From: Chlorophyllum brunneum | Taxonomy: Eukaryota > Basidiomycota > Agaricomycetes > Agaricales > Agaricaceae | DNA: 64,000 nt | Reading direction: 5' to 3' | NCBI GenBank assembly: GCA_963576785.1 | Contig: OY756148.1 | Location: 1,798,001 to 1,862,000 of the forward strand | Shown: positions 1-53,470 of the stretch, one piece after another | How positions within the stretch are numbered: position 1 is the stretch's first letter | Layout of the letters: each line of letters opens with the position of its first letter | Program-made: the position numbers and the translations under genes | Notes under the pieces: model-generated | What the model was told of the DNA's origin: nothing | The model's input: the letters and a program-made list of their open reading frames with translations, nothing else | Database searches by the model: none

Positions 1-2960
1 CTGGACTTTGGGTTGTGGTGAGTATAGTCATTGAGACATGGGATACTCCAAAGTCTGTCACCATTGCTCGGTGAGCGTCAGATACAAGGACATTGCTCTA
101 CGCATCCAGAATCAGACGGTTGCATGAGAAGTAAGAGGAAAATTATGATACCGCTTTGAGGTCAGAGTGTATGATTTTCGATTCGTGTAGGTATTGTATG
201 CCATCGATGATATCAGAGATCTGGCGCATGTGAGCAATGACGACAGAGGAGCAGAGCCAATGAGGCACTCACGAGTAGTACTCGAGGGCTGTCAGGGAAT
301 AAATTTAGATAGGCAAGGAGATCACCGTTCCGTATCCATGGTGAAACAATACAAACTCTTGGTATCGGTTCGTCCGACGTGTAGACGCCGTAAAATGGGA
401 CGATATTCTTATGTGACAGGTGTGCCCATAGGACGAGTTCCTTCATGTGTGCCTATCATATCAACGGTATTGATTGACCACGTCAGGCAGGAGGAAGGGG
501 GAGAACACTCACTTTCATACTCCGTTCGTTACCTCCTCCAGAGTATAGGCGGACGGCTTTTACGCATATATCATGACTTCTGTACATTCCCTTGTAGATG
601 AAACCAAACCCTCCGAAATTGTGATGCTTTGCGAGATCGCATTGAACACCGTCAAGTTGACAAGATGTCGGAAAGACCTGCGCAGACCGAGCAAGCTTAG
701 AAAGGAGAGAAAGTAGGTTTTTTCTCTCGTTAAGCTCGATTTGACCGTCATCATCATCAAGAATCTTCGATCACTGTATATGAGGTTTTAACATATCAAT
801 GGGTTATGATATAACGTACTTGATTGAGGAAATCGACCACGCGCTGAGCGTCGTCTCCCGTAAGGTCAGCAAGCTGTGCTCTCGTCGCTGGATTCCCAGT
901 GAGACTGCCTATCAAAGCTCGAGATTTGGTGTAAGCGGCATCCCTGGTGTTGGAACCCGTTAGAGATCGGGTGATATGATTGTCGTCGGATGCCGTAACA
1001 TCACTTTCTGAGTTCGCACTCCTCGATTTACTATTGAAAACCTTGAGGAAAACAGATGTAAGCTTTTCAATGCTCGACTGTCCTTTTGTATGTCCCAGTT
1101 TTCCAGCGGTTTCCTTTGGAACTGGAAACCGCGAGCTACCGGGGCTCGAAGTCCGTCTCTTGTGTCCCCTACCCCCGTTGGCGTTAGTCGCGTCAGGTAC
1201 TTGGGGTGGATTCACAACAATTATGGGTGTCGGTGACTGGGGTGCTGGTACGGCAGACGCGCGAGGTTGTGTGTCATCGTTGGGTGGGGTGGCTGGCCCA
1301 GTTGCGGGCTGAGGTTCTGTCGAATTTACAGGGGCCAAAACTGCAGGCATATGAGGTTGCGAGACCTCACTGGGTGGTGTAACTGGTGCAGTCGCGGGTT
1401 TACGTTTCGTCGAATCTTGCGATGCAGGCCCACGGGGTTGCGGAGGTTTAGATGGAGGTTTTGGTTTCTTCGAATCTACAGGACTCGTGGGGTGGGGCGA
1501 GGAAGGGATGTTATTCGAACTGCGACGGATAGGTCGAGTATGTGTATTCCGTTGTGAGGGAGTCTGCACCTGCGGTTGCGTGGGCGCCCGCTCGCTGGCG
1601 ACAGCTGCAGAGGCGCCTTTATTCTTCCGACGACTACGGCCATCTTGGCTTCTTGAGCGGCTGATTACAGGCACATCGGTATATTGGACCTGAGTAGTGT
1701 GATCAAGTATCCTAGCATTTCGTTTCCCCTTGTCTTTGTTACCGGGAGGCGAAGAGACTCCATCGCTGGACCGTGCCTTCTGTTCAGGGATTTTTGGAGA
1801 CGTAGATGCAGCTACCACGTCAGCAAGGCGTTTGTACCCTGGTCGGTGTTGGTAGTAGTGTACTAGTACCGCACGTGCTTCAAGGTCTTCGACGGTATTT
1901 CCAAAAACGCTGGGGCGACCGTCTGTTCTCGGAATACCGGCAAAGGCGGATAACCACCTATGAGTGATGATAGTGTCGATATTGGCGCGGCGCGTGGGAT
2001 CCGGAACAAGCATCATCTTGAGTAGATCCTTGGCGTCGGCAGAGGTATGGTCGGGGAAGGAGAGGGGAGTTCTGGCAATGTATTTGTAAAGTAGATTGAC
2101 ATCTTCACCATCAGGGTTGGCTGGATCATCGTCAAAAGGTAGGATACCAGCGACCATGGCATAGAGAATGACCCCACAACTCCAAATATCAGCAGCCTTG
2201 CCCGAATAGCGGCCTTGGCCGACAACCAGTTCGGGCGCGGCATAGCAGGGACTACCGCAGCGAGTTTCCATGAGATCGTCTGATTTCCTTTGAAAGGAAT
2301 TAGCGAAGTAGAAGTCGTTGATGACGAGATTCCCGTTGCTATCAAGGAGAAGGTTTTCGAGTTTGAGATCACGGTGAGCGATCTTCTTCTGGTGGATGTA
2401 CCAGACTCCAGAGATGAGCTGAGAAAAGAGTCTGGCAGCTTCTTTTTCTCTGAGGGGGCGGTGGGTGAGGATGTAATCCAAGAGCTCGCCTCTGGGTGGG
2501 TGTTGGAGGATGATCCCGAGGTATTCATCGCTTTCGATGACGTCGTAGAGGCAGACAATGTTTGGATGTTTAAGAGACTACAAACCATGTTGAGGTCAGA
2601 CCCGAAAGTGGAATAAACGGAAGAACGCACAAGGATAACTTCAACCTCACGCGCAATATTCGACCGCCGAGTAGTATCAGTTAGAAATTTGCGCTGAATA
2701 GTCTTGACAGCTACCTCTTCTCCCGTTTGAGCATGGACTCCAAGTCTGACTTTGTAAAAATCTTCCCTTTCTAGAGTTTGAAGTAGGAGGTAGGAACCGA
2801 ATTTGGGGATCGTGCGAGCTTCAGATGGATGGGCAGTCGCGTAAGACTTTACTGCCGGATAACGAAAGATATCGTCTTCCTGGGTAGAGGCTGCAGCTAA
2901 GTCAGAGGTTGACCGTGGTTTGCGAGCAGCATCTTGTGGTTTTAGAGCACTTGGTGCCAT
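1..2960 (-). CDS. Kin4-like pseudokinase fused to TKL kinase (copy A, truncated by window edge)
   Basis: The start ATG is at 2960-2958. Exon 1 (2960-2631, 110 codons) and exon 2 (2577-820, 586 codons) encode a Kin4/Frk1-type CAMK kinase fold, then a proline/serine-rich tail, then the linker ending LTGDDAQRVVDFLNQ. After an intron, using acceptor CGAAG before base 764, the frame continues into a TKL kinase: glycine loop FGGFGFIYKG, lysine in CVKAVRLYS, catalytic HSDLKASN, and DFG. The TKL part runs off the window at base 1. The first kinase keeps K86, H178-R179-D180 and the APE region (CYAAPE), but residues 64-69 read EREDFY where GEGEFG is usual, and 198-200 read DFY instead of DFG. It is therefore probably a pseudokinase or atypical. 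Fusion is visible because the kinase tail and the TKL-type linker share one exon. It diverges from the eIF2D pseudogene. Two separate genes cannot be excluded without RNA. Confidence 0.82.
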
Positions 2961-3050
2961 TGAAGGAGGATGGGAGAGACGACCTTGGTTGCTGTTAATG
3001 CGCCATATGCACCACCGGTGAATGAATAAAGCCGCTCTTCTATCAAGATC
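2961..3050. promoter_or_regulatory. putative upstream region of copy A (divergent with eIF2D pseudogene)
   Basis: This short stretch between the copy A start codon and the decayed eIF2D copy corresponds in position to the 202 nt divergent spacer upstream of copy C. No clear TATA box is seen. The promoter role is inferred from position only. Confidence 0.35.
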
Positions 3051-3850
3051 CCGTTAACATATATGGAAATAAAACGTCATGGTTGACGTGGGAACATTTA
3101 TGATCATCAACCTCTAAAATAAGACATCGTCACCTCAGACAGATGCAAACTCAAACGACGCGTCCATTCTACCTTCTCAACAACAAATATAACACCAATA
3201 TTCTTATCCTAGACAACATCCTCACAACAAATTCTTTACATACGCAAAAGAACCCGGCGTACGTCTTTCGTTTGCTTTAATTGGTCATCAGAACTGGAGT
3301 GATTTAGACCCTGTATTCAGATCGGGTGCATGGAAATCCTTTCTTTTTAGTTTAAAGGATCTGCAGTAGGCGGTGCCGATCTTGAGATTCCCGGGGGGTC
3401 AAAATCTACTCGTTTACTCCCGCACCCGTGAATCAAGCCAATTAATTTATCACACACACACACAGTCTACACTCGGTCTAGTCGTGGCACTTCAACGATC
3501 AAGTAAGAAGAACGATGATGGTACTATAGCTAGGCTTGCTTCGCCACCACTTCCTACTGGGAGAATGGCGATAGAGTAAAGACTTAGAAGCGGGGGGCAA
3601 GGCTGTGCTGGTTTTGCATACTTGGAAAGCTTACCTTTGGAAGATGGGGTAGAGCGACGTACCGCCTAGTACGCCTTTAGGCACTAACTATCGGGCTGAC
3701 TAAGGTGACGAAGATGTGATGGAGGATAGGGAGGAGATTAAAGAAGGCGAGTGCAACGTCGCTGTCCAGGACGAAGAGACAGATGATGAGGAAGTTACCG
3801 ATTCAATACCCAAACTCACCTATAGACCGCACCAAATTTCTTATCCGTGT
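3050..3850 (+). pseudogene. decayed 5' part of eIF2D (duplicate of 12032-12960)
   Basis: Blocks align by eye to the intact eIF2D gene downstream. They include the TACGCAAAAGAACCCGGCGT junction of exon 1 and intron 1, the intron region with TCAGAACTGGAGT, the segment encoding KNDDGT...RLxSPPL...GRMA, the VLHTWK segment, and the acidic segment before the KxTY region. The start codon and N-terminal MFKKP region are not intact and there are stops and indels throughout. The similarity fades near 3850, before the SWIB and SUI1 regions, so the copy is also truncated at its 3' end. A CA-rich microsatellite (about 3452-3464) lies inside. It diverges from kinase copy A exactly as functional eIF2D diverges from kinase copy C. 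Confidence 0.8.
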
Positions 3851-4432
3851 ACCTGTTAAGGACACCACCACGAAATTTTGAACAGAGACAGGCCTTCTGG
3901 ACGTCATTCATTTGTTCTCCGCGTCATCGTCGTGCTAGAATGCCTTGCTGTCCCACCCGGAAGAAGTTGATGCCTGAAAACGGGCAATTGATTACCAATT
4001 TTGGCAGGCCATTCTTCAAAGTATTGTGTTGTTCTCGCCGATCACGGTCTCAATAGGACAGGGCCCTATTTTTAGTTGAGACTGAGGCTGTTGAAAGAGA
4101 GTTAACCAGACCATCATGGTATAAAAGCTTGAGCTTTGAATACATGAGGGGTCGATCAAACTTGGATGTGTTCAGATATGCGACCTATTTGGGCAAGTTG
4201 CAGCTTAGTTTATTCCAACCTCCACCTCGAACCTGTATTCTCCTTCGTTCCATTCTCTCCCTTCCCATCCAACTCTTCTTTCTCGTCTCCGCCAGCGCCG
4301 CAGTCAATACCCCTCGGAACTTTGAACTACAGCAACTTCTGCTCAAGTGCCATCTCGTCGCGAATTCAATCCCTGTACTCAACAACCCATTTAGATTGAG
4401 GTGTGACAGATGTGGAAACCTTAGTTTGCTTT
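3851..4432. other. unassigned spacer between eIF2D pseudogene and copy B
   Basis: I see no convincing coding pattern here. Short open frames exist, but they have no recognisable domains and no splice-consistent continuation. It lies downstream of the 3' end of the Rheb-TKL gene and probably holds its 3' untranslated region plus rearranged DNA. Confidence 0.4.
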
Positions 4433-7134
4433 CTATTTCCACTTTACCATTCCCCTCACTGATAAATCATTGTTGAATCTATACAGTACGTGAGCGGCAA
4501 CTCCACCATCATTCAAGCCACTTGCCTGTTGTAGAATTTCATACACTCGTTCATGACTGATCTTCGTGTCGAACCTAGCCCTCTTCATGTCCAAGAAGGC
4601 TGCCCTATCGTCGACTTGTGGGCGATTATCCTGAACTTCTAGATCTGCGATAAATTGCCTAATTTCCCGGCATCCTGGACGTTTCTCAGGATCATAACTC
4701 CAGCACTCCTCCATCAATGTCCACATTTGATCCTCAGCTTCACTCTTCCTGCTGTCCCTCGGTGCTGGCCGGAGTGGAACGACCCCGCCTTTGATAAGAG
4801 CGAATATCAACTGTGCAGCATTCTTGTAATTCGAAAATGGCATTTCGCCAGTGAAGATCTTGAATACCATGAGATTAAAGACGAAACACTGTCTTCTGAG
4901 TCCAGCTCACCTCATAGCAGACACAACCAAATGCCCAGATATCACTCTCCTCCGTCGCTGGTGCACCGTCTTCCTTAAACATTTCGGGGGCCATCCAATT
5001 TGCTGTACCGGCCGGGCTTTGGGTCGTGGTGAGTAGAGTCATTGAGACATGGGATATTCCAAAATCGGTCAGCATTGCCCGCTGGGTGTCAGATACGAGG
5101 ACATTGCTCTAGAAATTGGGTATCAGACCACTAAACGAATAGTATGGGATGAATCACTGTACCGCTTTGAGGTCAGAGTGTATGATTTTTGACTCGTGTA
5201 GATATTGTAGGCCAGCGATGATATCGGAAATCTTGTGGATTTAAACAATGACAAAGGAGTAAGAGTCAATGAGATACTCACAAGTAGTACTCGAGGGCCT
5301 TGAGGGAATGCATTTAAATAAGCAAGAAGATCACCGTTCCGTATCCATGGTGAAACAATGCAAATCCTTGGTGTTGCTTCGTCCGAGAGATAGACTCCGT
5401 AAAACGGAAGGATATTTTCATGTGACAGGTGTGCCCATAGGACGAGTTCCTTCACATGCGCCTGTCACAGTCGCATTTTTAATCAACTAGGATATAAAAA
5501 GAGAAGAACACCTACTTTCATATTACGTTCGTTATCTCCCCCGGAATACAAGCGGACAGCCTTTACACATATATCATGGTTCCTATGCATTCCCTTGTAT
5601 ATGAAACCAAACCCTCCGAAATTGTGATGCTTGGCGAGATCACATTGGACACCCTGGAGCCGATAACATGTTGGGAAGACCTGAGCAGACCTAGCAAGTT
5701 TAGAAAGGAGAGCAAGGAGGCCTTTTCTTTCATTAAGCTCCATTTGACCGTCCTGATCGTCAAGAACCTTCCGATCACTGTATGTGAGCCCGTAAATACC
5801 AGGCGGTTGTATAACCTACCTGATTGAGGAAATCGACCACACTCTGAGCGTCATCTCCTGTGAGGCCAGCAAGTTGTGCTCTCGTCACAGGACTTCTCGC
5901 GAGACTGCATATCAAAGTTCGAGATCTGGTGTAGGCGACACCCGTAGTATGGGAACTTGTTGGAGGGTCCGTGAGATGACTCTCGTCAGGGTCCGTAAGA
6001 GTTTCTGTGCTCGTATTCGCACTACCACCGGAAATGTTGAACAAAGAAGATGTAAACCTGTCGGTACTCGATGTCCTCCGTTTCTCGATTTCTGCCAGGC
6101 ACAACTCGAAAACCTTGTCTACAGTTTCGTGTGATTCCACAACATGGTTATACTCCAGGTACAATGACTACGTACCGACGTTGATATTCTCCTTTGCACT
6201 CACCTCAACGAATGCAGCCCGGTTGGTCTTGGCAAGCATCGCACCGTCAGCTGTGGCAACTTGTCGCCTATATGAATTCGGACCAACGTCAGCATATACC
6301 TTCAAAACCATTGGAGAACCAGTCGGCGATTGGGAGCGCTGGGAATGGCAGGGATTGCATTGACGAAAGTCCCTCATATGAAGGATGGGTGATCAGGAGA
6401 TTGGATGACAAGCCAGGAGAGTCATGGAAAACCCCACCCTTTTGGAGAAAAAACCAAGTAATAATGCCGACTCACCCAGTGGATGCAAGATCGCTCTCTG
6501 AGCCTACAATTACGCAGGGTATATCGCCCATCCCACAGAAATCGATGATCTTGTCATACACAATCTGGATCATGTCGAAGGAACTACGAGATGTGACAGA
6601 GTATACGAGAATGTAACCATGGATTCCAATGGCATGTTGTGCATTTATCGGCGAGTACTCGTCCTATTGAAGGTCTGTCTGAATGGGTGGGGAAGTAGGG
6701 CATGAGGCAATCGCACCAGACCGGCAGTGTCGATGATACGACAGTCGTATTCGAGGCCTTTGTATTTCACACTCTTTGCAAAAGTAGTCTCGATGGTGGG
6801 ATAATATGCATCCAGAAAATGATTCTAGGATAAATTGATAGATGTCAACCCCGAGGATAGAGTAAGGTAGAGCACAGAGGAAGGCACCTCGATGAACCGT
6901 TTCACCAACGAGGATTTGCCTATTTATCCCGCCAACCATCGACCATGGCAATCCAGGATCACATGAGACATCGTACCAGAAAATCAACAAGCAAGAGAAA
7001 GAAGCCCAATGGGATTATTATCAGCATACGAAAGCCAATTCGCGCAACGTTGGGTACTTACCAACTGAACGCCGCCCCAACACCGCAATCTTTCTTCTCT
7101 TCACTGATGTCGCCGCTGAGTTTGATGTAAACAT
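4433..7134 (-). CDS. Rheb-like GTPase fused to TKL kinase (copy B)
   Basis: The start ATG is at 7134-7132. Exons 7134-7062, 6919-6888, 6824-6717, 6663-6476, 6267-6176 and 6118-5820 join in frame (264 codons) into a Rheb-like GTPase plus linker. P-loop GRRSVGKSS is at residues 20-28, switch I YYPTIETTF, DTAG-L-DEYS at 67-75, IHGYILVYSVTSRSSFD, and VFELCLAEIEKR. The last GTPase helix and the TKL linker (LTGDDAQSVVDFLNQ) share exon 6. Then comes a TKL kinase with GGFGFIYKG, CVKAVRLYS, HSDLKASN, DFGIS, MAPEMF and GEMPFSNYKNA. Oddities: residue 71 is Leu (CTG) where Rheb/Ras have Gln64/Gln61; the NKxD motif reads SESD (126-129); there is no CAAX end. The 3' end is uncertain: a GC-donor intron would end translation at 4467, readthrough at 4433. 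Exon boundaries are my inference, but all phases fit. Confidence 0.85.
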
Positions 7135-7329
7135 ATGTGTTATCTATTTCAGATATTACCCGAGTGGGCTGGTGATGAGCTTCGAGTAGAAATGGAAATC
7201 TACCTCTTGTCTTCTCAACAACCCAACCCAGCATGAAGCGCCAATTTACTGGCTTGTGCGGTCACATGTTCAACGTACACATATTGCTAAGAGCACACCT
7301 ACTCCTAAGGTGTGGTGAGCATAAGAATT
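7135..7329. promoter_or_regulatory. putative promoter of Rheb-TKL gene (B)
   Basis: This is the 195 nt between the start of copy B and the 3' end of the next relic on the same strand. The head-to-tail packing leaves little room for regulation. No definite TATA or other element is recognised. Confidence 0.3.
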
Positions 7330-8060
7330 TCATCCCCGTTCTCTGCTTCCCTGCTCTTTCCCTCTACCCAGTTCTCCCCTCTGATTGATCCCCGTTGAAC
7401 CTATACAGCACGTGAGCGGCCAATCCACCAACCGTCCAGGCCGCTGCAGGATCCAGTACACTCGTTCATATTTGCTCGCGTTGAGCCGAGCCCTCTTCAC
7501 GTCCAAGACTGCACCATATTCAACCGGTGGGCGATTATCCTGGACCTCCAGATCCGCGATAAACTGCCGGATTTCTTGGCATCTCGGGCGTTCCTTGCGG
7601 TCATAGTTCCAGCACCTCTCCATGACTGGCCATATCCGTTCTTCAGCTTCAGTCTTCCTGTCATGTCCTTATGCTTGTCGTAGTGGAAAGACCCGGTGTC
7701 TGATAAGACTTTTATCAACTGTACAGTGTTCTTGTAATACGAGAATGGTTTCTGGCCTGTGAAGACCTTGAAAACTGTGATGCCTATTTATACCGCGAAC
7801 CATCGATCATGGTAATCCAGAGTCACACGAGAAAGACCAAGTCTATGAGATATACGACAGTCTCAAAAAAGCAAAGAAAGGAACATAAAAAGGTTCAATC
7901 AAGTTGTTATCGGCCTATGAAAGCCAAAAACGCGCGACGTCACACACACACACCAAGTGAGTGCGGCCCCAACGCCACAATCTTTCTTCCCCCTCACAGA
8001 TACTACCGCTGAGTTTGATGTCGACATACGTACTTACTATTCCGGATACTGCCAGATTGA
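7330..8060 (-). pseudogene. relic of a second Rheb-TKL fusion (internal deletion)
   Basis: Read on the minus strand, about 8060-7780 resembles the first exon, first intron and following bases of the Rheb module of copy B: the same 'tttgatgt...ccgctgag' leader, the segment encoding KIVALG, and matching intron bases. The sequence then jumps directly to the last third of a TKL kinase (7780-7330), with RCWNYD, EIRQFIADLEVQDNRPP and a degenerate YERVYWILQ. Everything between, meaning switch regions, linker and kinase N-lobe, is missing. The TKL part is frameshifted near 7620-7700. It is a non-functional deletion derivative and shows that Rheb-TKL was duplicated at least once. A CA repeat lies near 7942-7953. 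Confidence 0.75.
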
Positions 8061-8130
8061 ACCGGTGATGAGCTTCAAGTAGGGCTAGGAGATACACATG
8101 CTGCCAAGTACCTTACAAACACACCTATTG

Positions 8131-11100
8131 CTAAGATGTAGTGAACATGAGGCCTTCATCAACCTCTTCTCCGCTCCCCTTGTCCTTGCCTTCACTTTCT
8201 GCCTTATCATCCTCCCCCTCGACCGATCTTTGTTGAACCTAAACAGTACGTAAGGCTCGAGCCAGTCCATCAACCGCCCAGGACACTCACCTGTTGTAGA
8301 ATCTCGCACACTCGTTCATAATTGATCTTCGTGTTGAACCTAGTCCTCTTCACATCCAAGAAGCTTGCACGATCGACGGGTGGACGATTATCCTGAACTT
8401 CCAGGTCCGCGATAAACTGTCGGATTTCCCGGCATCCCGGGCGTTTCTCAGGATCATAATTCCAACACCTCCCCATCAATATCCACATTTGATCCTCAGC
8501 GTCACTCCCCCTGCCATCCCTTGGTGCTGGCCGGAGTGGAACGACCCCGCCTTTAATAAGAGCGAATATCAACTGTGCAGCATTCTTGTAATTCGAAAAT
8601 GGCATTTCGCCGGTGAAGATCTTGGATACCATGAGATTAAAGACGAAACACTGTCGTCCGAGTCCAGCTCACTTCGTAGCACACACAACCAAATGCCCAG
8701 ATATCACTCTCCTCTGTCGCTGGTGCACCGTCTTCCTTGAACATTTCTGGGGCCATCCAGTTTGCTGTACCGGCCGGGCTTTGGGTCGTGGTGAGTAGAG
8801 TCATTGAGACATGGGATATTCCAAAATCGGTCAGCATTGCCCGCTGGGTGTCAGATACGAGGACATTGCTCTAGAAATTGGGTATCAGACCACTAAACGA
8901 ATAGTATTGGATGAGTCACTGTACCGCTTTGAGGTCAGAGTGTATGATTTTTGACTCGTGTAGATATTGTAGGCCAGCGATGATATCGGAAATCTTGTGG
9001 ATTTAAACAATGACAAAGGAGTAAGAGTCAATGAGATACTCACGAGTAGTACTCGAGGGCCTTGAGGGAATGCATTTAAATAAGCAAGAAGATCACCGTT
9101 CCGTATCCATGGTGAAACAATGCAAATCCTTGGTATCGCTTCGTCCGAGAGATAGACTCCGTAAAACGGAAGGATATTTTCATGTGACAGGTGTGCCCAT
9201 AGGACGAGCTCCTTCACATGCGCCTGTCATAGTCGCATTTCTAATCAACTATAATATAAGAAGAGAGGAGCACCTACTTTCATATTCCGTTCATTATCAC
9301 CCCCAGAATACAAGCGGACAGCTTTGACACAAATAGTATGATTTTTATGCATTCCCTTGTAGATGAAACCAAACCCTCCGAAATTGTGATGTTTGGCGAG
9401 ATCGCATTGGACGCCCTTGAGCCGATAACATGCCGGAAAAACCTGGGCAGACCTAGCAAGTTTGGAAAGAAGAGCAAGTAGACGTTTTCTTTCATTAAGC
9501 TCCATTTGACCATCTTGATCGTCAAGAATCTTCCGAACATACTTTGTGAGGGCTAAAATACCAATGGGTTATTCGTATAACGTACTTGATTGAGAAAGTC
9601 AACCATGCGCTGAGCCTTGTCTCCCGTAAGTTCAGCAAGCCTTGCCCTCGTCGCAGGACTCCCTGCGAGATTCAATATCAAAGCTCGAGCTTTCTTGTAA
9701 GCAGCAGGCGCTATCTTTGGACTCGTCGGAGATTCCATAACAACATAACCTTCCCCAGATCCCGATGCACTTTCTGGGCTCGCATTCGCACTACCATTGA
9801 AAAACTTGACAAAAGCCGATGTAAGCTTATCAATGCTCGATCGTCCTTTAACATGTCCCAGCCTGCCAGTGGCTTTCTTCGAAGCTGAATACCACGAACC
9901 ACCAGGACTCGAAGTCCCCTTGCTGTGGTACGGAATTTTTGTTGGATGATGTTCCCTGTCTTTGTTGGTGTTAATCGAGTCAAGGCTTGGGGTTCTTGTC
10001 ACAATGACCGGGGGTATAGAAATGGGGTACCTTTCTATGTGAATTGGGGCGGGCGGTGTATATATCTGGTGCGGTGGTGTAGAAGGCACCACAGGCGGTA
10101 TATATGGTTGGTATGGTGGGGTGGAAGGTACGACATGCGGTATATATGGCTGGAACTCTGGTGGGGAGGGTGTAGTCGGAGGTATGTATGGCCGGTACGG
10201 TATTGATGAGGGCATAACAATCGGGGGTTCTCTGTTCTTGGTACTGTATTGCGGAAATGTCGGGAGTGGAGGCGGAAGAATTGTACGAGGTTGCGGGGCC
10301 TTGATAGGTATAGGTTTAGATTTCGACGAGTCTATAGGCATTGGCGCTGGGAGTATAATAGGATCAGGCGACGCGGGGAGAGGTTTATTTGAACCACGAC
10401 GGATCGCTCGACTACGTGCATCACGCCGTGAAGGAATTTGTGGTTGCGGTGGGTGCGTAGGATGTCGTTCGATGACAGGGGCGATAGGGATGTTATTGCT
10501 CGACCGACGACCATCATGACTTCTTGGGCGTGTGACTACAGACACGTCGTTGTATTGAACCTGAGTAGTATGTTCAAATATCCTAGCATTCCGCTTCCAG
10601 CTGTCGGTGTTATCTGGAATTGAAGAAGGACCATCACTGGTCTGTGACTTCTGTTCAGAAGTCTCGGACGATATGGCTGCAGCTACCACGTCAGTGAGGC
10701 GCTTATACTCGGGTCGGCGCTGTTGAGAGTGTTCTAGTGCCACACGTTCAAGGTCTTCCACAGTGTTTCCAAACACGTTAGGGCGACCGTCTGTTCTCGG
10801 AGTACCACCAAAGGCGGATAACCACCTATGGTTGATGATAGTGTCGATATTGGCGCGGCGTGTGGGATCCGGAACAAGGATCATGCTGAGGAGATCCTTG
10901 GCGTCGGCGGAGGTATAGGAGGGGAAGGAGAGGGGGGCCGTAGCGATATATGTGTAGAGTAGGTTGATATTGTCGCCATCAGGGTTGGACGGATCATCGT
11001 CAAAAGGTAGGTAACCAGCGAGCATGGCATATAGAATGACACCACAACTCCAAATATCAGCAGTTCTACCTGAATAGCGGTCATCGCTGATAACTAGTTC

Positions 11101-11829
11101 TGGTGCAGCATAACATGGACTACCACAACTAGTCTCCATAAGATCATCAGATTTTCCTTCAAAGGAATTAGAAAAGTAGAAATCTGTGATGACGACATTC
11201 CTTTTGCTATCAAGGAGGAGGTTTTCGAGCTTGAGATGACGGTGAGCGATCTTCTTTTGATGGATATACCAGACACCGGAGATGAGTTGAGAAAAGATCC
11301 TAGCAGCTTCTTTTTCTTTGAGGTAACGATGGGCGAGGATATGATCGAAGAGCTCGCCTCCGGATGAGTGTTGGAGGATGATACCAAGGTATTTGTCAGT
11401 TTCAATGACATCGTAGAGACGGACGATATTTGGATGTTTGAGAGACTACAAATAAAGTCAAAACCAGAGCTGAAAATAGAAGAGAATGGAAGAACGTACA
11501 AGGATAACTTCAACTTCACGTTCAACCTTTGGCAACCGAGTAGTATCGGTAGTTACCAATTCGCGTTTGATAATCTTGACAGCTACCTCTTCGCCTGTTT
11601 GAGCATGGACACCGAGCCTGACTTTGTAGAAATCTTCCTTTTCTAGAGTCTGAAGTAGGAGGTAGGGACCGAATTTGGGGATCGTGCGAGCTTCAGATGG
11701 ATGAGCAGTCGTGTAGGCTTTTACTGCTGGGTGACGATAGATGTCTTCTTGTTGGGGTGAGGTTACAACCAAATGAGAGGTTGGGCGTGGTTTGCGAGGA
11801 TCTGATGGACTTAAAGCACCTGGTGGCAT
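8131..11829 (-). CDS. Kin4-like pseudokinase fused to TKL kinase (copy C)
   Basis: The ATG is at 11829-11827. Exon 1 codes 110 residues. Exon 2 (11445-9586, 620 codons) carries the rest of the Kin4-like fold, a long proline-rich segment with repeated PYIPPxxPSTPP-like units, and the linker LTGDKAQRMVDFLNQ. Acceptor CGGAAG leads into the TKL kinase (GGFGFIYKG, CVKAVRLYS, HSDLKA, DFGIS, APEMF, EIRQFIADLEVQDNRPP). In the N-terminal fold the glycine loop reads EKEDFY (63-68), the catalytic triad reads H178-R179-H180 instead of HRD, and DFG reads DFY. This is a strong pseudokinase signature, while the TKL half keeps its catalytic residues. The last intron (donor GTGAGT after ILQQ) gives an acidic tail ending at 8131; without it translation ends at 8270. 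Its TKL part is almost identical to that of copy B, introns included. Confidence 0.85.
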
Positions 11830-12031: not shown

Positions 12032-14607
12032 ATGTTCAAAAAACCAATAGGCCAGCTGAAAACATCAGCACCCATACGCGCCTCAGACAGACGCAAGCTC
12101 AAACAACGCGTCATATCCACCTTCTCTACTCTCCAAGAACACGGCGACCTTCTCATCCCAGACGGCATCCTCACAGCCAAATTCTTCACATACGCAAAAG
12201 AACCCGGCGTACGTCTTTTGTTTACTTTGTCTACGTTACATTGGGTATCAGAACTGGAGTGGTTTAGACTTTGTATTTAGATCCGGGGAATGGCAATCCT
12301 CTTTGGTTCACTATCGGTAAGGGATCTGAAGACCTGATACCGACCGTCTACACGCTATGGAAACTCCAAGATTCTAATTTGTTACCGTATGTGTTTACAC
12401 CATCGGCGGTTATCCCTATCCTCGTCGGTGGTGCAGATCTTATGATTCCTGGAGGTTAAGATTTCCTTGTTTACACGCCGATCAATGACACTGAAGTGAA
12501 TTAAGCTAGTTATCATGCATATACCGTCTACACTTGATCAAGGCCAGCTCGTCGCGGTTCATCAGCTATCAGGTGCGAAGAATGATGATGGTACTATGAC
12601 TCGACTCGTTTCGCCACCACTTGCTGTTGGGAGAATGGCTATATCAAGTGAAGGTTTGAAAGCGAGGCGAGAAGCAGACGAGAAAGGGAAAGCGGTACTG
12701 GTATTGCATACTTGGAAAGATCACCTTTGGGAGGTGGGACAGAAGGGCGACGTGCCGCCTAGTACACCTTTGGGTGCTAACGATCAGGCTGAGGGAGGTG
12801 ATGAAGGCGAAGTGAAAGACGAAGAAGAGAAAGCTGAAGAAAATGAAGGTGATGTCGGTGCCCAAGATGAAGAGCCAGATGAAGAAGATGCTGCCGATTC
12901 GACGCCCAAAATCACCTACACACCCGAAGAAATCTCCGACTTGCTCACTAGATCTCTTATCCACGCAATCGCAACTCAATTAACCTCTCCACCCAAAGAC
13001 ACATTCCCAATCCCATCCACCCAACTCTATCAAACATATATCCTTCCATCTCGTCCTGCATACCCAACTTCCATCCTCTCACCATCATCCGCTCCAGTCG
13101 ATTCCGAAGACATCCATATCGACCCATCGGAAATTACAATCAAAGCCTCTACACATAAATCCGTCTCAACCTTTCTCAAAGCTGTTGGGGGAGCATCTTT
13201 CCTCACACTCAAATATACTAAACAAAAATCTGGTGGGAGTGATTATGTGGTGACGAGTGTGAATGTTGAACATCCCGATGTGGTGGCTTATGCGACTGGA
13301 AAGGATGTGAAACGGCATGTTACTGTAGCGGATATTGAGGCGAAGAAGGCGAAGAGACTTGCGAGAGAGGAGAGGGAGGAGAGGGAGAGGGAGAGGAGTG
13401 AAAGGGAGGTTGAGGTTCGTCAGGTGTGGAAGCCTTGGTTGGGAAGTATTGGGTTGTTCGAGGATATGGGTGCCAAGTGAGTATCCTACTGACTAATTTG
13501 AGATTTTACTTATGTGGTGCAGCACTTCAGCTGTGTACACACTCAACGATATTCGAATTCTTCTCAACGACTACTTTGTCTCACAGCAATTGATCAACCC
13601 GCGTGATCAAGCGTATATCAATCTCAACCGTCCTTTACTGGCCTGTCTGGCGGCCAAGTCCTCCGTTGAACCCGGCAAGAAAGTTAGCAAAAGTGGCGCG
13701 GAACCATCAGCAGAATTCATGAAACGAGATGAACTGATGAAAAGGATCGTGGAACACATGCAAAGTTGGTATGAAGTCAAAGCAGAAGGAAAAGATATCA
13801 TCACAACGTATGTTTTTATCTCCTTTTTATCTTTTCTCTGTCATCTTCGGGAGGGTTATGAACTCGCTTGCTGTGTATCACTCGGTACCTTACACAAAAA
13901 CTGACATCCGGGGCGTACCTATTCCGCAGTAAAGGCGAGATCAAACCAATACGAGTAGAGGTTAAATATAAAATGGGGGGTAGGAGGGGAATAACGGCGA
14001 TTACGGGATTTGAACCGTTCATGGTTATTGATGCAGAGGAAATGGCAGAGAAGATTAGAAAGATATGTGCTGGGTCTACTTCAGGTCAGTTTTTCATTTT
14101 TAACAGACTCTTTGCTCACTACTAAATTTACTTTTGTTCGCCTGCTCGTTTTCTCTTCCTCGGTCCCTCGTTTATTGGTTCTATAAACACTCGTGGTGTT
14201 ATTCTAATTTTGGTTCCTGGGGTTTCTGACATTACCCATCGCGGATGCCCAACTCTCCGGTGGACCGTATTTCCACACCATGGTTTGATGGATTCATGTG
14301 GGTCCGCCCCCTCCTGCTTGGGTCCGCTGACCCTTGGTGCTGCGGCGCTGCGGCGTTATCGCCACTCATGACTGCGGTGATGACGATGGGCGCTATTTTG
14401 AACATGGTGTTCACTAATGCCGACTTTTCAACAAACGCGTAATACCTTGAGCTTGTAGTTTCGCCATATCAAGTTCCGGGGACAAATCAACAGAGGTTGA
14501 AAGTGGTTGTGCAAGGAAAACAGAGTAAAGCGGTTGTGGATTACCTGATTGAGAAGGGTATTCCAAAGAAGTGGATTACGGTTGCGGAGATGGTAGGGAA
14601 GAAATAG
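12032..14607 (+). CDS. translation initiation factor eIF2D (Tma64/ligatin family)
   Basis: eIF2D is a cytoplasmic ribosome-associated factor acting in non-canonical initiation and in recycling of 40S subunits. Exons 12032-12208, 12268-12454, 12510-about 13479, about 13523-13807, 13930-14084 and 14459-14607 join in frame. Landmarks: MFKKPIGQLKTSAP and RRKLKQRV at the N-terminus; GNPLWFTIGKGS, PTVYTLWK and GGADLMIPGV of the PUA region; LVAVHQLSG...VGRMA; an acidic low-complexity stretch; a SWIB/MDM2-like region; and a C-terminal SUI1 domain (GRRGITAITGFEPF, KICAGSTS). The domain order and length fit the family. The start was chosen because MFKKP is the conserved N-terminus; an upstream in-frame ATG at 11987 lies in the divergent promoter and is less likely. 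The last intron is unusually long. Confidence 0.92.
14085..14458 (+). other. unusually long (374 nt) last intron of eIF2D
   Basis: The donor is TCAG/GTCAGT and the acceptor CTTGTAG. Splicing restores STSVSPY in the SUI1 domain. The other introns of the gene are about 45-120 nt. The extra GC-richer DNA (about 14,140-14,440) could be a small non-autonomous insertion, but I found no terminal repeats or target duplication. Confidence 0.7.
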
Positions 14608-15062
14608 AGTTGATATTCCATTGGGGGCGTGTGTGTGTTTACAGCTTTTACGCCCTCGAATGGTGTACACGTTCTGAAGGGGTGCCGTAACGGGATACTT
14701 GTGATTTTTATTTCCGTGAGAGGGACTAGGAGACGTGAGGCTAATACAGACCCCAATACGACGGATAATTGCCGGAGACAAGGGCAGTGGTACACGCGTC
14801 GGCCACGCTGGAGGCCTTGGACGGAGCTTGGCCATGTCATGCCTGTCTACAGCCCATCACCCCATCCATCACCGTTTATATATCCTCCCAACCTCGTCTC
14901 TTCCCTCCCTCCCTCTCTTATAATACTCCCATCGACCCGGGTCTGAACTATACCACCACGTTGCCATTCAGCCGAATCCTCTTATACATAATAGATAGAC
15001 TCCTCTCCCCCAAACACCCAAATCCCAACCACCTTGGAGATCACCCACCAACGAAGACTATT

Positions 15063-16811
15063 ATGGTGCCAATCAGCGATACATGGCCTGATGTCCAACT
15101 TTCTCTCCAGCTTCTTCCGCCCGAATTTGTGGATCGGGTGACTTCCCTCGTCGACTGGCTCGCTCCTCACTTTTCCAACATCGAGGCTTACGCTAGTAGC
15201 CTGCACCCTCAACGGAGAAAATGTCGAATCGTGAAGGATAACTATACGTGGGGACAGTCGTTTGCGGTGTTCGAGATTGTGTTCGAAGGTGCTGGAGACG
15301 AGGAGGAGAAGAAGCTAGAATGGGAAGACGAGTCGTGGATCATCCGATTTGGAATGCGTCCAATGGATGCCTACTTCAACACCGCAGCTCAGCTCGAACG
15401 TAAAATCCTCAACGAAGTCGCTGCTCTCCATCTCGTCCGTACACGAACCTCCATCCCAGTCCCTCAAATCATCTCATACCATCCCGTCGCCGGTGATAGT
15501 GACCCTTCCGAACATCAGTACCCACACTCTTCCCATCCCCTCGGTTCTTCCTTCCCCGCTTTCGTCTTGATGACTGCCATTCGTGGCATCACAATTGAAG
15601 ATTGTGGTATCGCCATTCACGAATTGGGACATGCCGATCCTGATTCGGATCCTTTACAAGGAAATGAAACCAAAAGACCGATATTGAAACAATATCTTAG
15701 GGATATTGCCGATATTCATGTTCAATTGAGTCGCATCACCTTTGACAGGATTGGAGGTTTTGTGATGGATGAACAAGGGAATGTCAGTGTGGGACCTGGT
15801 GCCGATTTTGGGTTGGGTCCGTTTCAGAGTGCGAAGGAGTATTTTGGGATTCAGGCCGAAGCGTATGAGAGGTTGGCCGAAGCTGCGAGTGAAGAAGATG
15901 CGGAGGAGGAGAGTAACAGCGGGGCCGTAGAAGATGATGGAGAAAAGTCGGCAGAGTGTTTGAAGAGGAGATTCGTGGCTTCCTTATGGCGTACGGCGAT
16001 GATGCCGCTGGTTGATGAACGTGATGCAGGTGGTCCTTTCCCAATGCGCCATGGCGATCTCCATAGTGAGAATATCCTCGTCGACGAAACCGGTCATATT
16101 GTTGGTGTGCTTGATTGGGATTGTGCAGCAACAGTACCTTGGGAGGCCTTTGCCGTTCCAACCTTCGAAGTCTCAGGACACTATGGCGAATCTAAAAACG
16201 AACCTAGGACACCTGTGCTTTCCTCTTCGACACCGGCTGTCACTGTTCCCACTACGACACAAGAGAAGCAACAACCATCAATCCGAGGTCCGACCGAGAA
16301 TGAAAACCAGGCTGTTGATGTTTCGAGTTCTGCGAAACATCAGCTTCGACGTGGTCATAAACGTAACCTTTCAAGACCACAAGTACACGAGGAATTTAAC
16401 AAAGCTCTCGTGGAGATTGAACTTCAATCTTCGACTTCATCGACAGAGTCGGATACGTCATCGACAACCACATCATCCACTTCCCTTTCCCCATCATCAA
16501 CCCCCTCCTCATCAGCCAACACCCTCGACACACCCAAACCACCACCCGTAACAGCCTCCGGTCGCTCTCTCGCAGCTTTACACGACTCCGACGCCGGCTA
16601 CGTCGGAGCATATCTCGCATATTGGATGTATTCACTCGCTTGTGATTATGAAGAAACGGGTAGAGCATTACATCGAATGCTCGTCGCTCGTGGTCTTCAA
16701 AATACTTCATCGAATGGTAAACATTCGGATGAGGGTGTTGTGGAAGGTGATATGGAGGAGGCTTTTAGGAACTTTGTGAGACGGGTTCGTGGTTCGGAAA
16801 CTACTGTGTAA
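15063..16811 (+). CDS. aminoglycoside-phosphotransferase-like (APH family) protein
   Basis: This is a single-exon gene of about 582 codons. The C-lobe carries the Brenner-type motif HGDLHSENIL followed by VGVLDWDCA, the APH/choline-kinase family catalytic and metal-binding motifs. Upstream are WIIRFGM and LERKILNEVAALHLVRTRT(S)IPVPQI, the N-lobe pattern of fungal phosphotransferase-enzyme proteins. A serine/threonine-rich insert (around 16,180-16,560) separates the catalytic part from a C-terminal helix region (DAGYVGAYLAYWMYSLACD). The ATG at 15063 is preferred over the in-frame ATG at 14769 because the intervening sequence has non-coding composition and a TATA-like stretch (TTTATATATC near 14875). 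The substrate is unknown; in fungi these proteins are typically of unassigned function and are not evidence of drug resistance. Confidence 0.85.
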   Translation: MVPISDTWPDVQLSLQLLPPEFVDRVTSLVDWLAPHFSNIEAYASSLHPQRRKCRIVKDNYTWGQSFAVFEIVFEGAGDEEEKKLEWEDESWIIRFGMRPMDAYFNTAAQLERKILNEVAALHLVRTRTSIPVPQIISYHPVAGDSDPSEHQYPHSSHPLGSSFPAFVLMTAIRGITIEDCGIAIHELGHADPDSDPLQGNETKRPILKQYLRDIADIHVQLSRITFDRIGGFVMDEQGNVSVGPGADFGLGPFQSAKEYFGIQAEAYERLAEAASEEDAEEESNSGAVEDDGEKSAECLKRRFVASLWRTAMMPLVDERDAGGPFPMRHGDLHSENILVDETGHIVGVLDWDCAATVPWEAFAVPTFEVSGHYGESKNEPRTPVLSSSTPAVTVPTTTQEKQQPSIRGPTENENQAVDVSSSAKHQLRRGHKRNLSRPQVHEEFNKALVEIELQSSTSSTESDTSSTTTSSTSLSPSSTPSSSANTLDTPKPPPVTASGRSLAALHDSDAGYVGAYLAYWMYSLACDYEETGRALHRMLVARGLQNTSSNGKHSDEGVVEGDMEEAFRNFVRRVRGSETTV

Positions 16812-38780: not shown

Positions 38781-41700
38781 CTAACTCGAAGCACCCCCTC
38801 CACCTCCCGCAACAGCAGCAGTAACAGCAGCAGCGGCAGTAACAGCTTTCCCGCTCGCCTCAACAGCCTGATCAAACTTTTTATTCCCACTCACACCGCT
38901 CCCATTCCTTTTCTGTTTTCCTTTCTGCTTCCCTTTCGTTTTCGAACTTCCACCATTTCCCTTCATACCACCAGCACCCCCTCCATTTGTTTTCGCCGTC
39001 GCCTTCCCATTCCCATTCCCATTAGCTCCGCCCTTTACTTCCACCTTTCGTTCAATCTCACGAGACTTCACCTCCTCAACTGTATTTCCGCTTCCAGCAG
39101 CGGCAGCAGGGGCATCGGCTTTATTCTGATCACCGTCCACAACTTTTCCTCCAATGACAGCGCTACCAGCAGTCGCATGAAACCTCTCTTCCTCCTCTTT
39201 CGTGATCTTCAACGGCACGAAAGCAGGCCCGGTACTGGCACTCGCATTTGTCGTCGGGGGAACGAGCGGTGAAGGTGATCTAGATTTCGACTTGGCCGAT
39301 GAGGCACGAGTAGGAGCCGTTGAATTTGAACCAGCCGACGAAGTTGAGGTCGAAGTAGTCGTAGTCGACGCAGAGCCAGAAGGAATAGACGACGACATAG
39401 TTGATACCGATCCCCTGATGTCCGAACCCGAACCACCAACGGGAGTAGAAGCTTCTTCACACATCAAAGATGAGGAAGAAACTACAACTTGTACCGGTGT
39501 CAACTCCTCATTCCCACTCTTCGTTCTTTGCTCATTCTTTTCAAGTGTTATTACCCCATGAAGACCATTCGGCATGGTAGGAACTGGAGACTTCACCGGC
39601 GATCCTGATCTAGATCTCGACACCTTCCCTTCAGCTTCTTCCTCCTTCATCACACCAACCAAAGGCATAAGTCCCACAACCGTCCTATTCGATACCGAAT
39701 GTCCATGCCTCATCGCCATCCTCACCCCATCTCCCTCTTCGCCTCTTTCACCGCGAAACATCCCAGGCGTTGGGGTACTCGCACTCGCCTCCGGCATCGT
39801 CGTCGTTAGAGGACCCAAAGGCGGTCCTAACCCAAGTACACCAGCACACCCGCTTAAAATCGCGATCCTATTCGCAAGTCCAGCATCAAACCCACGCATA
39901 ATACCAATAGCGGGCAAATTCGGTGGTAAGATATCTTCACCTACACCTCCACCAGTTCCAGAATTCTGATAAGCTGCGAACGAGGGTGACGTCGACGTTC
40001 CTCCTCCCGCTCCTCCACCTGGACTCGTCGTAGCACTACCAATACCACTCCCACCTGCCTGGGTATGACCGTGATACGGTACAGCAACACGAGGCGACTT
40101 AGGTACAGTCGTTTGATAATAAACCGTCGTTGTCGTGGGTGCTGATGATTCCATATTCATATCCAAAGTCAATCTCGGACTCGCATGACCATGATTGTTA
40201 TTAAGAAACCTAGGAGATTGTGATATTCCCGCTATACGCGGCGATGATGATGAATTAATCCTCGGCGAATGCGTGTGTGAATGGGAGTGGTGAGAATCGA
40301 AAGAGGAAGGTGAAAGTAATTCAGGTGATCCCGGGACCAGTGGTGAATTCATTTGGTGAGAAATCGACCATCCTTGTTGTTGCTGGGGGGTATTAAACCC
40401 AGATCCTCCTCCTTGTCGTTGTTGTGTATGGTGGTGATGGTGATATGGTCTAGGAGGACGGGTATATTCTGATCTCGGTGATGATGTTCCTGAACCCACA
40501 TTGTAGTTGTGGTTGTGATTGTGAAATGAAGGAGTACGAAAAGACGTAGGGGGAGATGGTGTACCAACTGATACGGCAACAGGTGATGATGACGGTGGTA
40601 TACCATGCGATTCTTGATGTTCCGAAGCGTATTGTCTCGCAAAACGCCCTCTACCACCATTCTGCGTTTGGAGTTGTGGAAGTTTAAGCGCATTGGCAGG
40701 GGTAAATGATGGTGGAACCCATCCTCTAGGTAACGAATCCGCAACATGCCAGGAAGGTCGGCGAATCGGCACCGCGTTGCCACCACTCGGATTCGGACTT
40801 GCAAAATACACCCCCTCAGTAAAACTCCTCACACTTCCAACCTCACTCAAACTCTCAACCACACTCCCAATATCACTGGACACTTCCGATCCTTCTTCCC
40901 ACCTATTATTATCCCCTTCCACCCCATCATCGCGCTTATAAGACCGTCTGGGGTCTTCCCTAGCCTCCGTAGACGCCGTACCCAACTCCAACGATTTATC
41001 TAGCTGTGATTCATACAATGTTCGATCAACAGAAGGTGCATCTGGTGGGGGTGGTGACGTCCATTTTGATCGTTTGGGAGCCATATGTTCGGGATGGATG
41101 TGGTCTGGCATTGGGTGGAGGAAGATGGAGATGGGTATATTCGTCGCAGCCGTTGTTGATGATGAAAGTGGAGGATGATGTGAAAAGTCGGAGGTATGCG
41201 ATTGCGATGGAGAAAGTGTTTGAATTTGTGATGGGAGGACGGTACTCTCCGTATCAGATGTGATTTCATTCGTATCCCCTGTCATGGTCCCTTTCGTGTC
41301 TTCAGTGACAGAGCCAAAATCATTCCTAGGCCTTGATCGGCTCTGACTTCCAACACTATACGGCGTCTGTGGTGGGATTCCCAACCTCGCCCCACCAGCA
41401 GGATGACGAGTGACATGTGAAGGAGCTGATACGAGATCTTCATCTTTTCGTTCTTCGCAGAGTTCGGCTAGTGCGATGACGGCTCGTTCAGGGCGTGTTG
41501 CGAGGATTCGGGAGGCACGCATAAATTCGCCTCGGATCTGGAGTATGTGTTAGCTTATGGAGGGTGAAGGGGGAGACGGCATACGGTGTATAGACCATCT
41601 TTCGTGACGCATCGTGCGACGTTGTAGTCTGTCTCAAACGGGTCCTATTGGGGTGGTGAGATTGAGTGAAACGGGTTGGATTGGTATCTCCCACCTCTAT

Positions 41701-47305: not shown

Positions 47306-47449
47306 TAGCCTTACCGATGGTTAAACCATTATCATCCCCTCTAACCAAGATAGGATGATAGGGCTTCACCTGACAGAGTTATCCTTGTATTTGATCATTG
47401 CTGATATGAGAATTTTCTTCTAGAAAGAAATACACTCAACGAAGATATT

Positions 47450-53400: not shown

Positions 53401-53470
53401 TCTCACAAAGAATTTAGACAAAATTAAATTCAATCTATTCCAACCTCGCCTTGGCTTGACGTTTGAGTGA
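47450..53470 (+). pseudogene. copia gag-pol, one frame interrupted by four stops
   Basis: Gag begins MSTNNIVAGLPKLNGPKNY (UBN2/copia gag fold; I see no CCHC zinc knuckle). Further along the same frame come the protease (WLLDSGASYH near 49.81 kb), the pre-integrase region (HARLGYPSNH ... CDGCAKGKMHQKPF), the integrase core (HSDL, CTDRGGEY, NGRAERLN = D,D,E), reverse transcriptase (NRWVFTPKSDG, LDVKTAYLYGKLDEELYM, LVYVDDSMFVG) and RNase H (SSTEAEYMAL). In-frame stops: TGA 48587, TGA about 48757, TAG about 49286, TGA 50750. No indel shifts the frame over about 2,007 codons. The stop at 50750 follows the integrase Glu and sits where an Arg (CGA) is expected. Confidence 0.93.

What the first reader, a model, noticed from the sequence alone, without database searches (positions are those of the whole stretch)
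1..11829. Modular family: interchangeable degenerate signalling modules on a conserved TKL kinase
All three genes share the linker (TRAxLAxLTGDxAQxxVDFLNQ type), the following intron position and phase, and the TKL kinase. The N-terminal partner is Kin4-like in A and C but Rheb-like in B. Both partner types belong to conserved growth or cell-cycle signalling and both are eroded at catalytic motifs while structurally complete. This is the pattern expected of integrated decoys or baits that a kinase guards, or of fixed-state regulators. It could be an undescribed fungal sensing system; the function is inference.
Basis: inference. Interest (0 to 1): 0.95.

Follow-up and report, generated by a model that had tools for sequence, protein, structure and literature searches.

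The report
Mushroom kinases fused to decoy-like partners
In a mushroom-type fungus, three neighbouring genes join altered copies of two cell-growth switches to one kind of kinase, and related mushrooms join the same kind of kinase to other partners, which looks like a home-grown fungal sensing or defence system but has not been tested.

Summary
Genes A and C carry a Kin4-derived kinase domain and gene B a Rheb domain, each joined in frame, inside one open exon, to a linker plus a TKL kinase whose catalytic residues read as intact. The donors are on the same contig and strand: KIN4 about 9 kb and RHEB about 30 kb left of the window. A and C lost the glycine-loop glycines, the DFG glycine and (A scanned) the KA1 tail; C also lost the HRD aspartate. 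'Eroded' is too strong for Rheb: its P-loop is intact and 3 of 49 near-invariant sites changed, two of them (human Q64, K120) at nucleotide-state positions. Ka/Ks of these domains is 0.14-0.19, so they are not decaying pseudogenes. The linker is the ordinary N-terminus of mushroom TKLs. In Leucocoprinus and Leucoagaricus the same module carries RhoGEF, Cdc24 without its GEF domain, MA3, a transcription-factor domain, Kelch, NACHT and other partners; RhoGEF-TKL is shared by two species. Partner sets differ by species. I favour bait (integrated-decoy-like) sensor kinases, with fixed-state regulators as the main rival. No function is shown.

The parts
1..2960 (-). Gene A: Kin4-like pseudokinase + Pro-rich region + linker + TKL; 1065 aa; 3' end lies outside the window (last sense codon at C10:1797392)
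   Evidence: Spliced model, no stop or frameshift; Pfam Pkinase in two stretches, no KA1 at E 0.01
1933..2810 (-). A: Kin4-derived kinase domain (intron 2630-2578); G-loop LEREDFYKV, VAVK, HRDLK, DFY
820..936 (-). A: linker AYTKSRALI...DFLNQ, followed by phase-0 intron 819-765
1..764 (-). A: TKL exons 764-513, 452-273, 220-152, 97 and on past the window's left edge
4433..7134 (-). Gene B: Rheb-like GTPase + Kin4-tail remnant + linker + TKL; at least 609 aa; 3' end not settled (probable GC-AG intron before a short last exon)
6078..7134 (-). B: Rheb module, 6 exons, all 5 introns at the same position and phase as own RHEB; Q71L and K127E (human Q64 and K120)
5940..6077 (-). B: remnant of the Kin4 tail (SSTDRFTSS...) between Rheb and linker; Rheb homology and TKL-side homology abut at 6077
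5820..5939 (-). B: linker, followed by phase-0 intron 5819-5768
4522..5767 (-). B: TKL kinase exons
4714..5505 (-). Stretch 92-100% identical to gene C in 100-column steps, against 62-90% upstream and 64-84% downstream: gene-conversion-like tract
7490..8082 (-). Deleted remnant of another Rheb/TKL copy (Rheb 5' end joined to TKL 3' part, the latter closest to A)
8131..11829 (-). Gene C: Kin4-like pseudokinase + Pro-rich region + linker + TKL; 1108 aa
10798..11682 (-). C: Kin4-derived kinase domain; LEKEDFYKV, VAVK, HRHLK, DFY
9586..9702 (-). C: linker, followed by phase-0 intron 9585-9530
8131..9529 (-). C: TKL kinase exons
3133..3828 (+). Fragmentary copy of the 5' part of the eIF2D gene (intact gene from about 11990 on), probably duplicated together with A
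   Evidence: blastn 68-77% to 12081-12924; WH_eIF2D domain in the frame 12500-13477

Best explanation
A, B and C are members of a lineage of mushroom TKL kinases that take copies of ordinary cellular proteins as N-terminal modules. Shown: the in-frame joins, the local origin of both donors, the loss of KA1 and CaaX, the changed catalytic residues, the purifying selection, a conversion-like tract between the B and C kinases, and other partners on the same kind of kinase in related genera. Inferred: the N-terminal copy serves as bait. A foreign factor (mycovirus, bacterium, mycoparasite, or a non-self partner at hyphal fusion) that attacks Kin4, Rheb or another hub also strikes the copy; this releases or activates the TKL (a non-RD kinase), which signals growth arrest or death. 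Loss of catalysis, KA1 and CaaX would keep the bait from disturbing the real pathway, while its binding surfaces are kept by selection.
For: In-frame exons spanning partner and linker; Ka/Ks 0.19 (0.13-0.29) for the Kin4 domain between A and C, 0.16 (0.10-0.29) for Rheb, 0.14-0.19 for linker+TKL; loop and DFG glycines changed in both A and C where every relative with a letter there has G (119 of 119, 120 of 120); partners differ by species while the kinase is kept; one Leucocoprinus subclade (support 0.997) holds four partner types; Cdc24 fusion P0146 shows no RhoGEF domain; NACHT and GTPase fusions exist on the same kinase; 24 of 24 own-genome TKL domains scored are non-RD by a crude pattern, a feature linked to innate immunity across kingdoms (PMC8463890, start of abstract in the listing).
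Against: No expression, interaction or phenotype data. Catalytic loss is not significantly concentrated: 4 of 15 catalytic against 23 of 192 other invariant sites changed in both A and C (Fisher p = 0.11). Rheb keeps its P-loop and switch I, and its changes resemble activation rather than inactivation. Kelch, RhoGEF, MA3 and PH_10 matches in this genome are not beside a listed TKL match. Some fusions of relatives are probably merged gene models. No positive-selection or presence/absence data.
Confidence: 0.45

Rival explanations
1. Fixed-state regulators: the modules are not bait but locked switches that bring the TKL to the normal partners of Rheb (TORC1) and Kin4, or titrate them. B would act as an always-on-like, membrane-free Rheb; A and C as Kin4 docking domains without catalysis or KA1.
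For: B keeps the P-loop and switch I but has Q64L- and K120E-like changes; a Lys-to-Arg change, K127R, was used as a hyperactive Rheb allele in Ustilago maydis after S. pombe work (PMC9704768, passages); that this is the same NKxD Lys is my reading from recall, not from the passages. All modules are under purifying selection. Rheb fused to other domains is known in protists (PMC5869587, passages).
Against: It does not explain why the same kinase carries RhoGEF, MA3, a transcription-factor domain, NACHT or Kelch in relatives; a Lys-to-Glu change may simply weaken nucleotide binding.
Confidence: 0.3
2. By-products: a gene-conversion-prone tandem array of TKLs joined by chance to neighbouring gene copies; selection acts on the TKL, and the partner only supplies promoter and start codon.
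For: Both donors are on the same contig and strand; Rheb came with about 130 bp of upstream sequence; a deleted remnant and an eIF2D fragment show unstable DNA; conversion-like tract in the kinase.
Against: Partner domains themselves have Ka/Ks 0.16-0.19 with no frameshift, while introns between A and C are 66% identical over 365 aligned bases with 16 gap columns.
Confidence: 0.17
3. Gene-model artefact: partner and TKL are separate adjacent genes.
For: Some database hits look like merges (GAPDH behind P0238, MRP-S33 before P0221); no RNA data here.
Against: In A, B and C the join lies inside one open exon read from DNA; B keeps the Kin4 tail in frame; RhoGEF-TKL recurs in two species.
Confidence: 0.08

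Closest known systems
Plant tandem kinase and kinase fusion proteins (wheat WTKs; Lr9 = WTK6-vWA; Sr43)
   Same: A and C are a kinase plus a probable pseudokinase in one chain; in wheat, kinases fused to other domains, for which the authors hypothesise integrated decoys (PMC10260399, passages)
   Different: Fungal; CAMKL/Kin4 plus TKL; partner is N-terminal; no resistance phenotype known; B has a GTPase instead of a second kinase
NLRs with integrated decoys (plants)
   Same: Extra copies of host proteins built into a signalling protein, sets differing between species (the plant side recalled)
   Different: A, B and C show no NB-ARC/NACHT and no LRR; only some other TKL proteins (P0125, P0235) have an NPHP3_N/NACHT domain
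Expanded TKL kinases of mushrooms (Laccaria bicolor)
   Same: Same kinase group; very large TKL number reported for Laccaria (PMC2838846, passages)
   Different: The word 'fusion' does not occur in the held text of that paper; the passages seen mention no Kin4 or Rheb partner
Kin4 (CAMKL) kinases
   Same: A and C kinase domain 69% and 76% identical to own KIN4
   Different: Loop glycines, DFG Gly and KA1 lost; TKL added
Rheb; PX-Rheb and FYVE-Rheb
   Same: B module 85% identical to own RHEB over 166 codons; fusion of Rheb to another domain has precedents in protists (PMC5869587, passages)
   Different: Partner is a C-terminal kinase; CaaX lost; Q64L- and K120E-like changes

Membership tests
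Mushroom TKL kinases | Conserved N-terminal region (GDxAQ..DFL) followed by phase-0 intron and TKL domain | tested here: met
Mushroom TKL kinases | Catalytic Lys, alpha-C Glu, HxD, Asn, DFG and APE present | tested here: met
   Read by eye in the A, B and C sequences; activity not assayed
Kin4 kinase (CAMKL) | Kin4-type kinase domain | tested here: met
Kin4 kinase (CAMKL) | Intact glycine loop and DFG | tested here: not met
   E/E/Y and DFY in A and C; G in 119 of 119 and 120 of 120 relatives with a letter there
Kin4 kinase (CAMKL) | C-terminal KA1 domain | tested here: not met
   KA1 in the own KIN4 tail, none in A at E 0.01; C runs into linker and TKL at the same place but was not scanned whole
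Rheb GTPase | Ras fold with RSVGKSS P-loop and Rheb as closest solved structure | tested here: met
   Ras 139.7 bits; Rheb best of the PDB sequence matches
Rheb GTPase | Switch II Gln and NKxD Lys | tested here: not met
   Q71L and K127E
Rheb GTPase | C-terminal CaaX | tested here: not met
   Own RHEB ends CLIM; B runs on into Kin4 tail, linker and TKL
Plant tandem kinase proteins | Kinase and pseudokinase in one chain | tested here: met
   A by Pfam, C by model; B has one kinase only; inactivity of the first kinase not assayed
Plant tandem kinase proteins | Kinases of the plant receptor-kinase type | tested here: not met
   Closest listed relatives are fungal Kin4 and fungal TKL
Plant tandem kinase proteins | Confers disease resistance | not testable with these tools
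   No call bears on it
NLR with integrated decoy | NB-ARC/NACHT and LRR or other repeat sensor | tested here: not met
   No such Pfam match in A or in the A, B and C exons scanned

The most novel reading that the evidence does not exclude
Mushrooms have their own receptor class, unrelated to NLRs: non-RD TKL kinases that capture copies of cellular hubs (Kin4, Rheb, Cdc24, RhoGEF, an MA3 domain, transcription factors) as integrated baits, with the kinase module kept uniform by gene conversion in tandem arrays and the bait set changing from species to species.
Probability: 0.3. Interest if true: 0.95.

Novelty: new variant of a known kind. Interest (0 to 1): 0.8.

Why it matters
What intracellular sensors mushrooms use against viruses, bacteria and mycoparasites is poorly known (my judgement). 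If the partners are baits, each fusion points to a host protein that some enemy attacks, and the expanded TKL family of mushrooms gets a function that can be tested. If they are fixed-state regulators instead, B is a natural Rheb altered at two sites that set nucleotide state, wired to a kinase, which would be a new kind of TOR-linked switch.

Tried and rejected
Pseudogene reading: rejected by Ka/Ks and open frames. Concentrated catalytic inactivation of Kin4 as proof of design: not significant. Dating the Rheb capture by B-C divergence: given up, because B-C identity is a mosaic, so Ks 0.324 (B-C kinase) against 0.455 (Rheb pair) does not order the events. Rheb 'only two invariant sites changed': corrected to three of 49. 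Partner families of the relatives in this genome: Kelch 30, RhoGEF 22, MA3 3 and PH_10 3 exon matches; compared by eye with the listed matches none lies within 5 kb, the nearest about 10 kb; one search did not list all its matches. PF01926 had no match beside a TKL, so the GTPase class was scored only by similarity to P0262, P0151, P0253 and like proteins. P0128 N-terminus: no family found. MA3 in P0233 gave no Pfam match in the whole protein nor in a mistyped piece and was found by BLASTP and PDB search. Fusions of relatives that may be merged gene models, by my judgement: GAPDH in P0238, MRP-S33 in P0221, actin in P0131, Pan3/HEAT in P0240, P0247 and P0249. Control for other Kin4-TKL or Rheb-TKL proteins: 0 of 120 Kin4-search proteins have a separate TKL domain and 0 of the other 159 have both Rheb and TKL; P0179, P0201 and P0255 have a second kinase domain that is weakly Kin4-like (43-79 bits). 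Structure prediction was not run: the spliced proteins are not letter-for-letter in the window DNA. Papers: nine searches, whose listings are capped (8 of 388, 8 of 10,224, 10 of 89), listed nothing on Kin4-TKL or Rheb-TKL fusions or decoy kinases in mushrooms; most papers of subscription journals are not held.
Full report
Setting. The window is C10:1798001-1862000 of an unnamed 38.9-Mb, 14-contig fungal genome. Its KIN4 is closest to proteins of Macrolepiota, Agaricus and Leucoagaricus among the 120 relatives compared, so it belongs in or near Agaricaceae (inference); the species is not known to me.

Anatomy. I modelled the genes by a spliced aligner of my own. A is 1065 aa, C 1108 aa, B at least 609 aa, all without stop or frameshift. 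In the linker+TKL part A and C have six introns at matching places, B five of them; for the sixth the aligner gave B a different, doubtful intron, and I read a probable GC-AG intron there instead (GC donors are recalled as usable). The linker intron is phase 0 after FLNQ in all three. Most of the 21 other TKL loci modelled in this genome, and TKL proteins of other mushrooms, have a comparable region before the kinase, so linker and intron are family traits, not special to these genes.

Donors. Own KIN4 (C10:1784799-1788649, minus) and own RHEB (C10:1766456-1767576, minus) lie on the same contig and strand. A and C share LE[RK]EDFYKV and DFY, so they probably descend from one already altered Kin4 copy. 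B has all five RHEB introns at the same position and phase. Rheb homology (6077-7268) and TKL-side homology (4466-6077) abut at 6077. B still has the Kin4-tail stretch SSTDRFTSS between Rheb and linker, so B most likely came from a Kin4-TKL gene whose Kin4 kinase was replaced by Rheb (inference). A remnant (7490-8082) joins a Rheb 5' end to a TKL 3' part. A's neighbour at 3133-3828 is a fragment of eIF2D, whose intact gene flanks C, so A and C are probably segmental duplicates. Outside the window, at C10:1790881-1791557 on the plus strand, lies a reading with a KA1 domain and no kinase (30 bits against a cut-off of 23), 38 of 50 residues identical to the end of own KIN4: the lost tail domain survives apart.

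Selection. NG86 Ka/Ks with bootstrap range: Kin4 domain A-C 0.19 (0.13-0.29), linker+TKL 0.19 (A-C), 0.17 (A-B) and 0.14 (B-C), Rheb against own RHEB 0.16 (0.10-0.29), Pro-rich part A-C 0.36 (0.25-0.50); own KIN4 against A 0.14 and C 0.12, at high Ks (1.2-1.3). The Rheb value averages a conserved branch with B's branch; if B had drifted freely for half of Ks 0.455, Ka should be near 0.2, not 0.075 (my estimate). Introns A-C are only 66% identical. So the altered domains are kept.

Catalysis. Against 120 Kin4 relatives, both A and C changed all three loop glycines and the DFG glycine; C alone changed the HRD Asp; Lys, alpha-C Glu, DFG Asp and Asn remain. Over 207 invariant sites the excess at catalytic sites is not significant (p = 0.11 for changes shared by A and C, 0.47 for A, 0.08 for C). 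'Probable pseudokinase' is fair for C and likely for A; no activity was measured. In Rheb, compared with 14 database Rhebs and human Rheb, 3 of 49 near-invariant sites changed: Q32R, Q71L (human Q64) and K127E (human K120). U. maydis Rhb1 K127R was used as a hyperactive allele after S. pombe work (PMC9704768, passages); that it is the same Lys, and that Q64L activates Rheb, is recalled. The TKL parts read as intact.

Recombination. In 100-column steps B and C are 92-100% identical from 5505 to 4714, 62-90% upstream and 64-84% downstream; outside the tract B is about as far from C as from A, a little closer to C on the downstream side. This looks like gene conversion of the kinase beneath different N-termini.

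How general. The search with C listed the best 120 of 1796 hits; none of the 120 has a TKL domain apart from its Kin4 domain. The search with B gave 99 hits, none with both a Ras and a kinase domain in the listed Pfam; over all 159 proteins, none has both Rheb and TKL. So these two fusions look restricted to this lineage, within that database. The search with the TKL of a Leucocoprinus protein gave 73 hits, itself included; by the listed Pfam domains 32 carry something beside kinase-like domains, 16 of them Kelch, all from Leucoagaricus. Scans placed the partner before the TKL for RhoGEF (P0133, P0221), a fungal transcription-factor domain (P0143; its Zn2Cys6 motif read by eye), Cdc24 CH+PH without RhoGEF (P0146), LSM14 (P0132, below the curated cut-off), NPHP3_N/NACHT (P0125, P0235), a GTPase domain (P0262) and Kelch, and the TKL first for GATA, CNH, MIF4G/MA3 and Arm. 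An MA3-like domain in P0233 was found by BLASTP (36%, E 1.8e-14) and PDB search (E 1e-4). P0133 and P0221 are 53% identical over 568 aligned partner positions and 64% in the TKL. In a tree of 86 TKL domains, A, B and C form a clade (support 1.0); one Leucocoprinus subclade (support 0.997) holds MA3-like, F-box-like (by eye), LSM14 and RhoGEF partners. In this genome 7 of 31 other TKL loci read have a GTPase-like stretch upstream, 4 of them in one frame with the linker; Kelch, RhoGEF, MA3 and PH_10 matches were not beside a listed TKL match. Partner sets thus differ between species.

Mechanism. I rank bait sensors first (0.45), fixed-state regulators second (0.30), by-products third (0.17) and artefact last (0.08). 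The non-RD character (24 of 24 own-genome TKL domains scored; 126 of 133 database domains with a readable motif; 52 of 209 kept domains gave no motif by this crude pattern and were dropped) fits an immune role but is no proof. Plant tandem kinases are the nearest working model, not relatives (PMC10260399, passages).

Limits. No RNA, no isolates, no assays. Database gene models are unverified.

Noticed in passing
L010:882-1558 (C10:1790881-1791557, +), outside the window: Reading frame with the KA1 tail of a Kin4 copy and no kinase, inverted relative to KIN4 and the array; may be a free KA1 gene or a fragment.
   Followed up: partly
window 47405-53467 (+): Copia-type LTR element frames: gag, integrase, reverse transcriptase. 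Seen in a Pfam scan only.
   Followed up: no
window 14769-16808 (+): 680-aa open frame with an APH-type phosphotransferase domain (45.9 bits), to the right of eIF2D.
   Followed up: no
window 38784-41549 (-): 922-aa open frame with no Pfam match at E 0.001.
   Followed up: no
L022, L023, L025, L027, L028, L030, L040: Other TKL loci of this genome have a P-loop GTPase-like stretch upstream, in four cases (L023, L027, L028, L040) in one frame with the linker.
   Followed up: partly
L021 about 308-1064 of the reverse complement: C2H2 zinc-finger motifs shortly upstream of a TKL; fusion or separate gene not settled.
   Followed up: no
   Followed up: no
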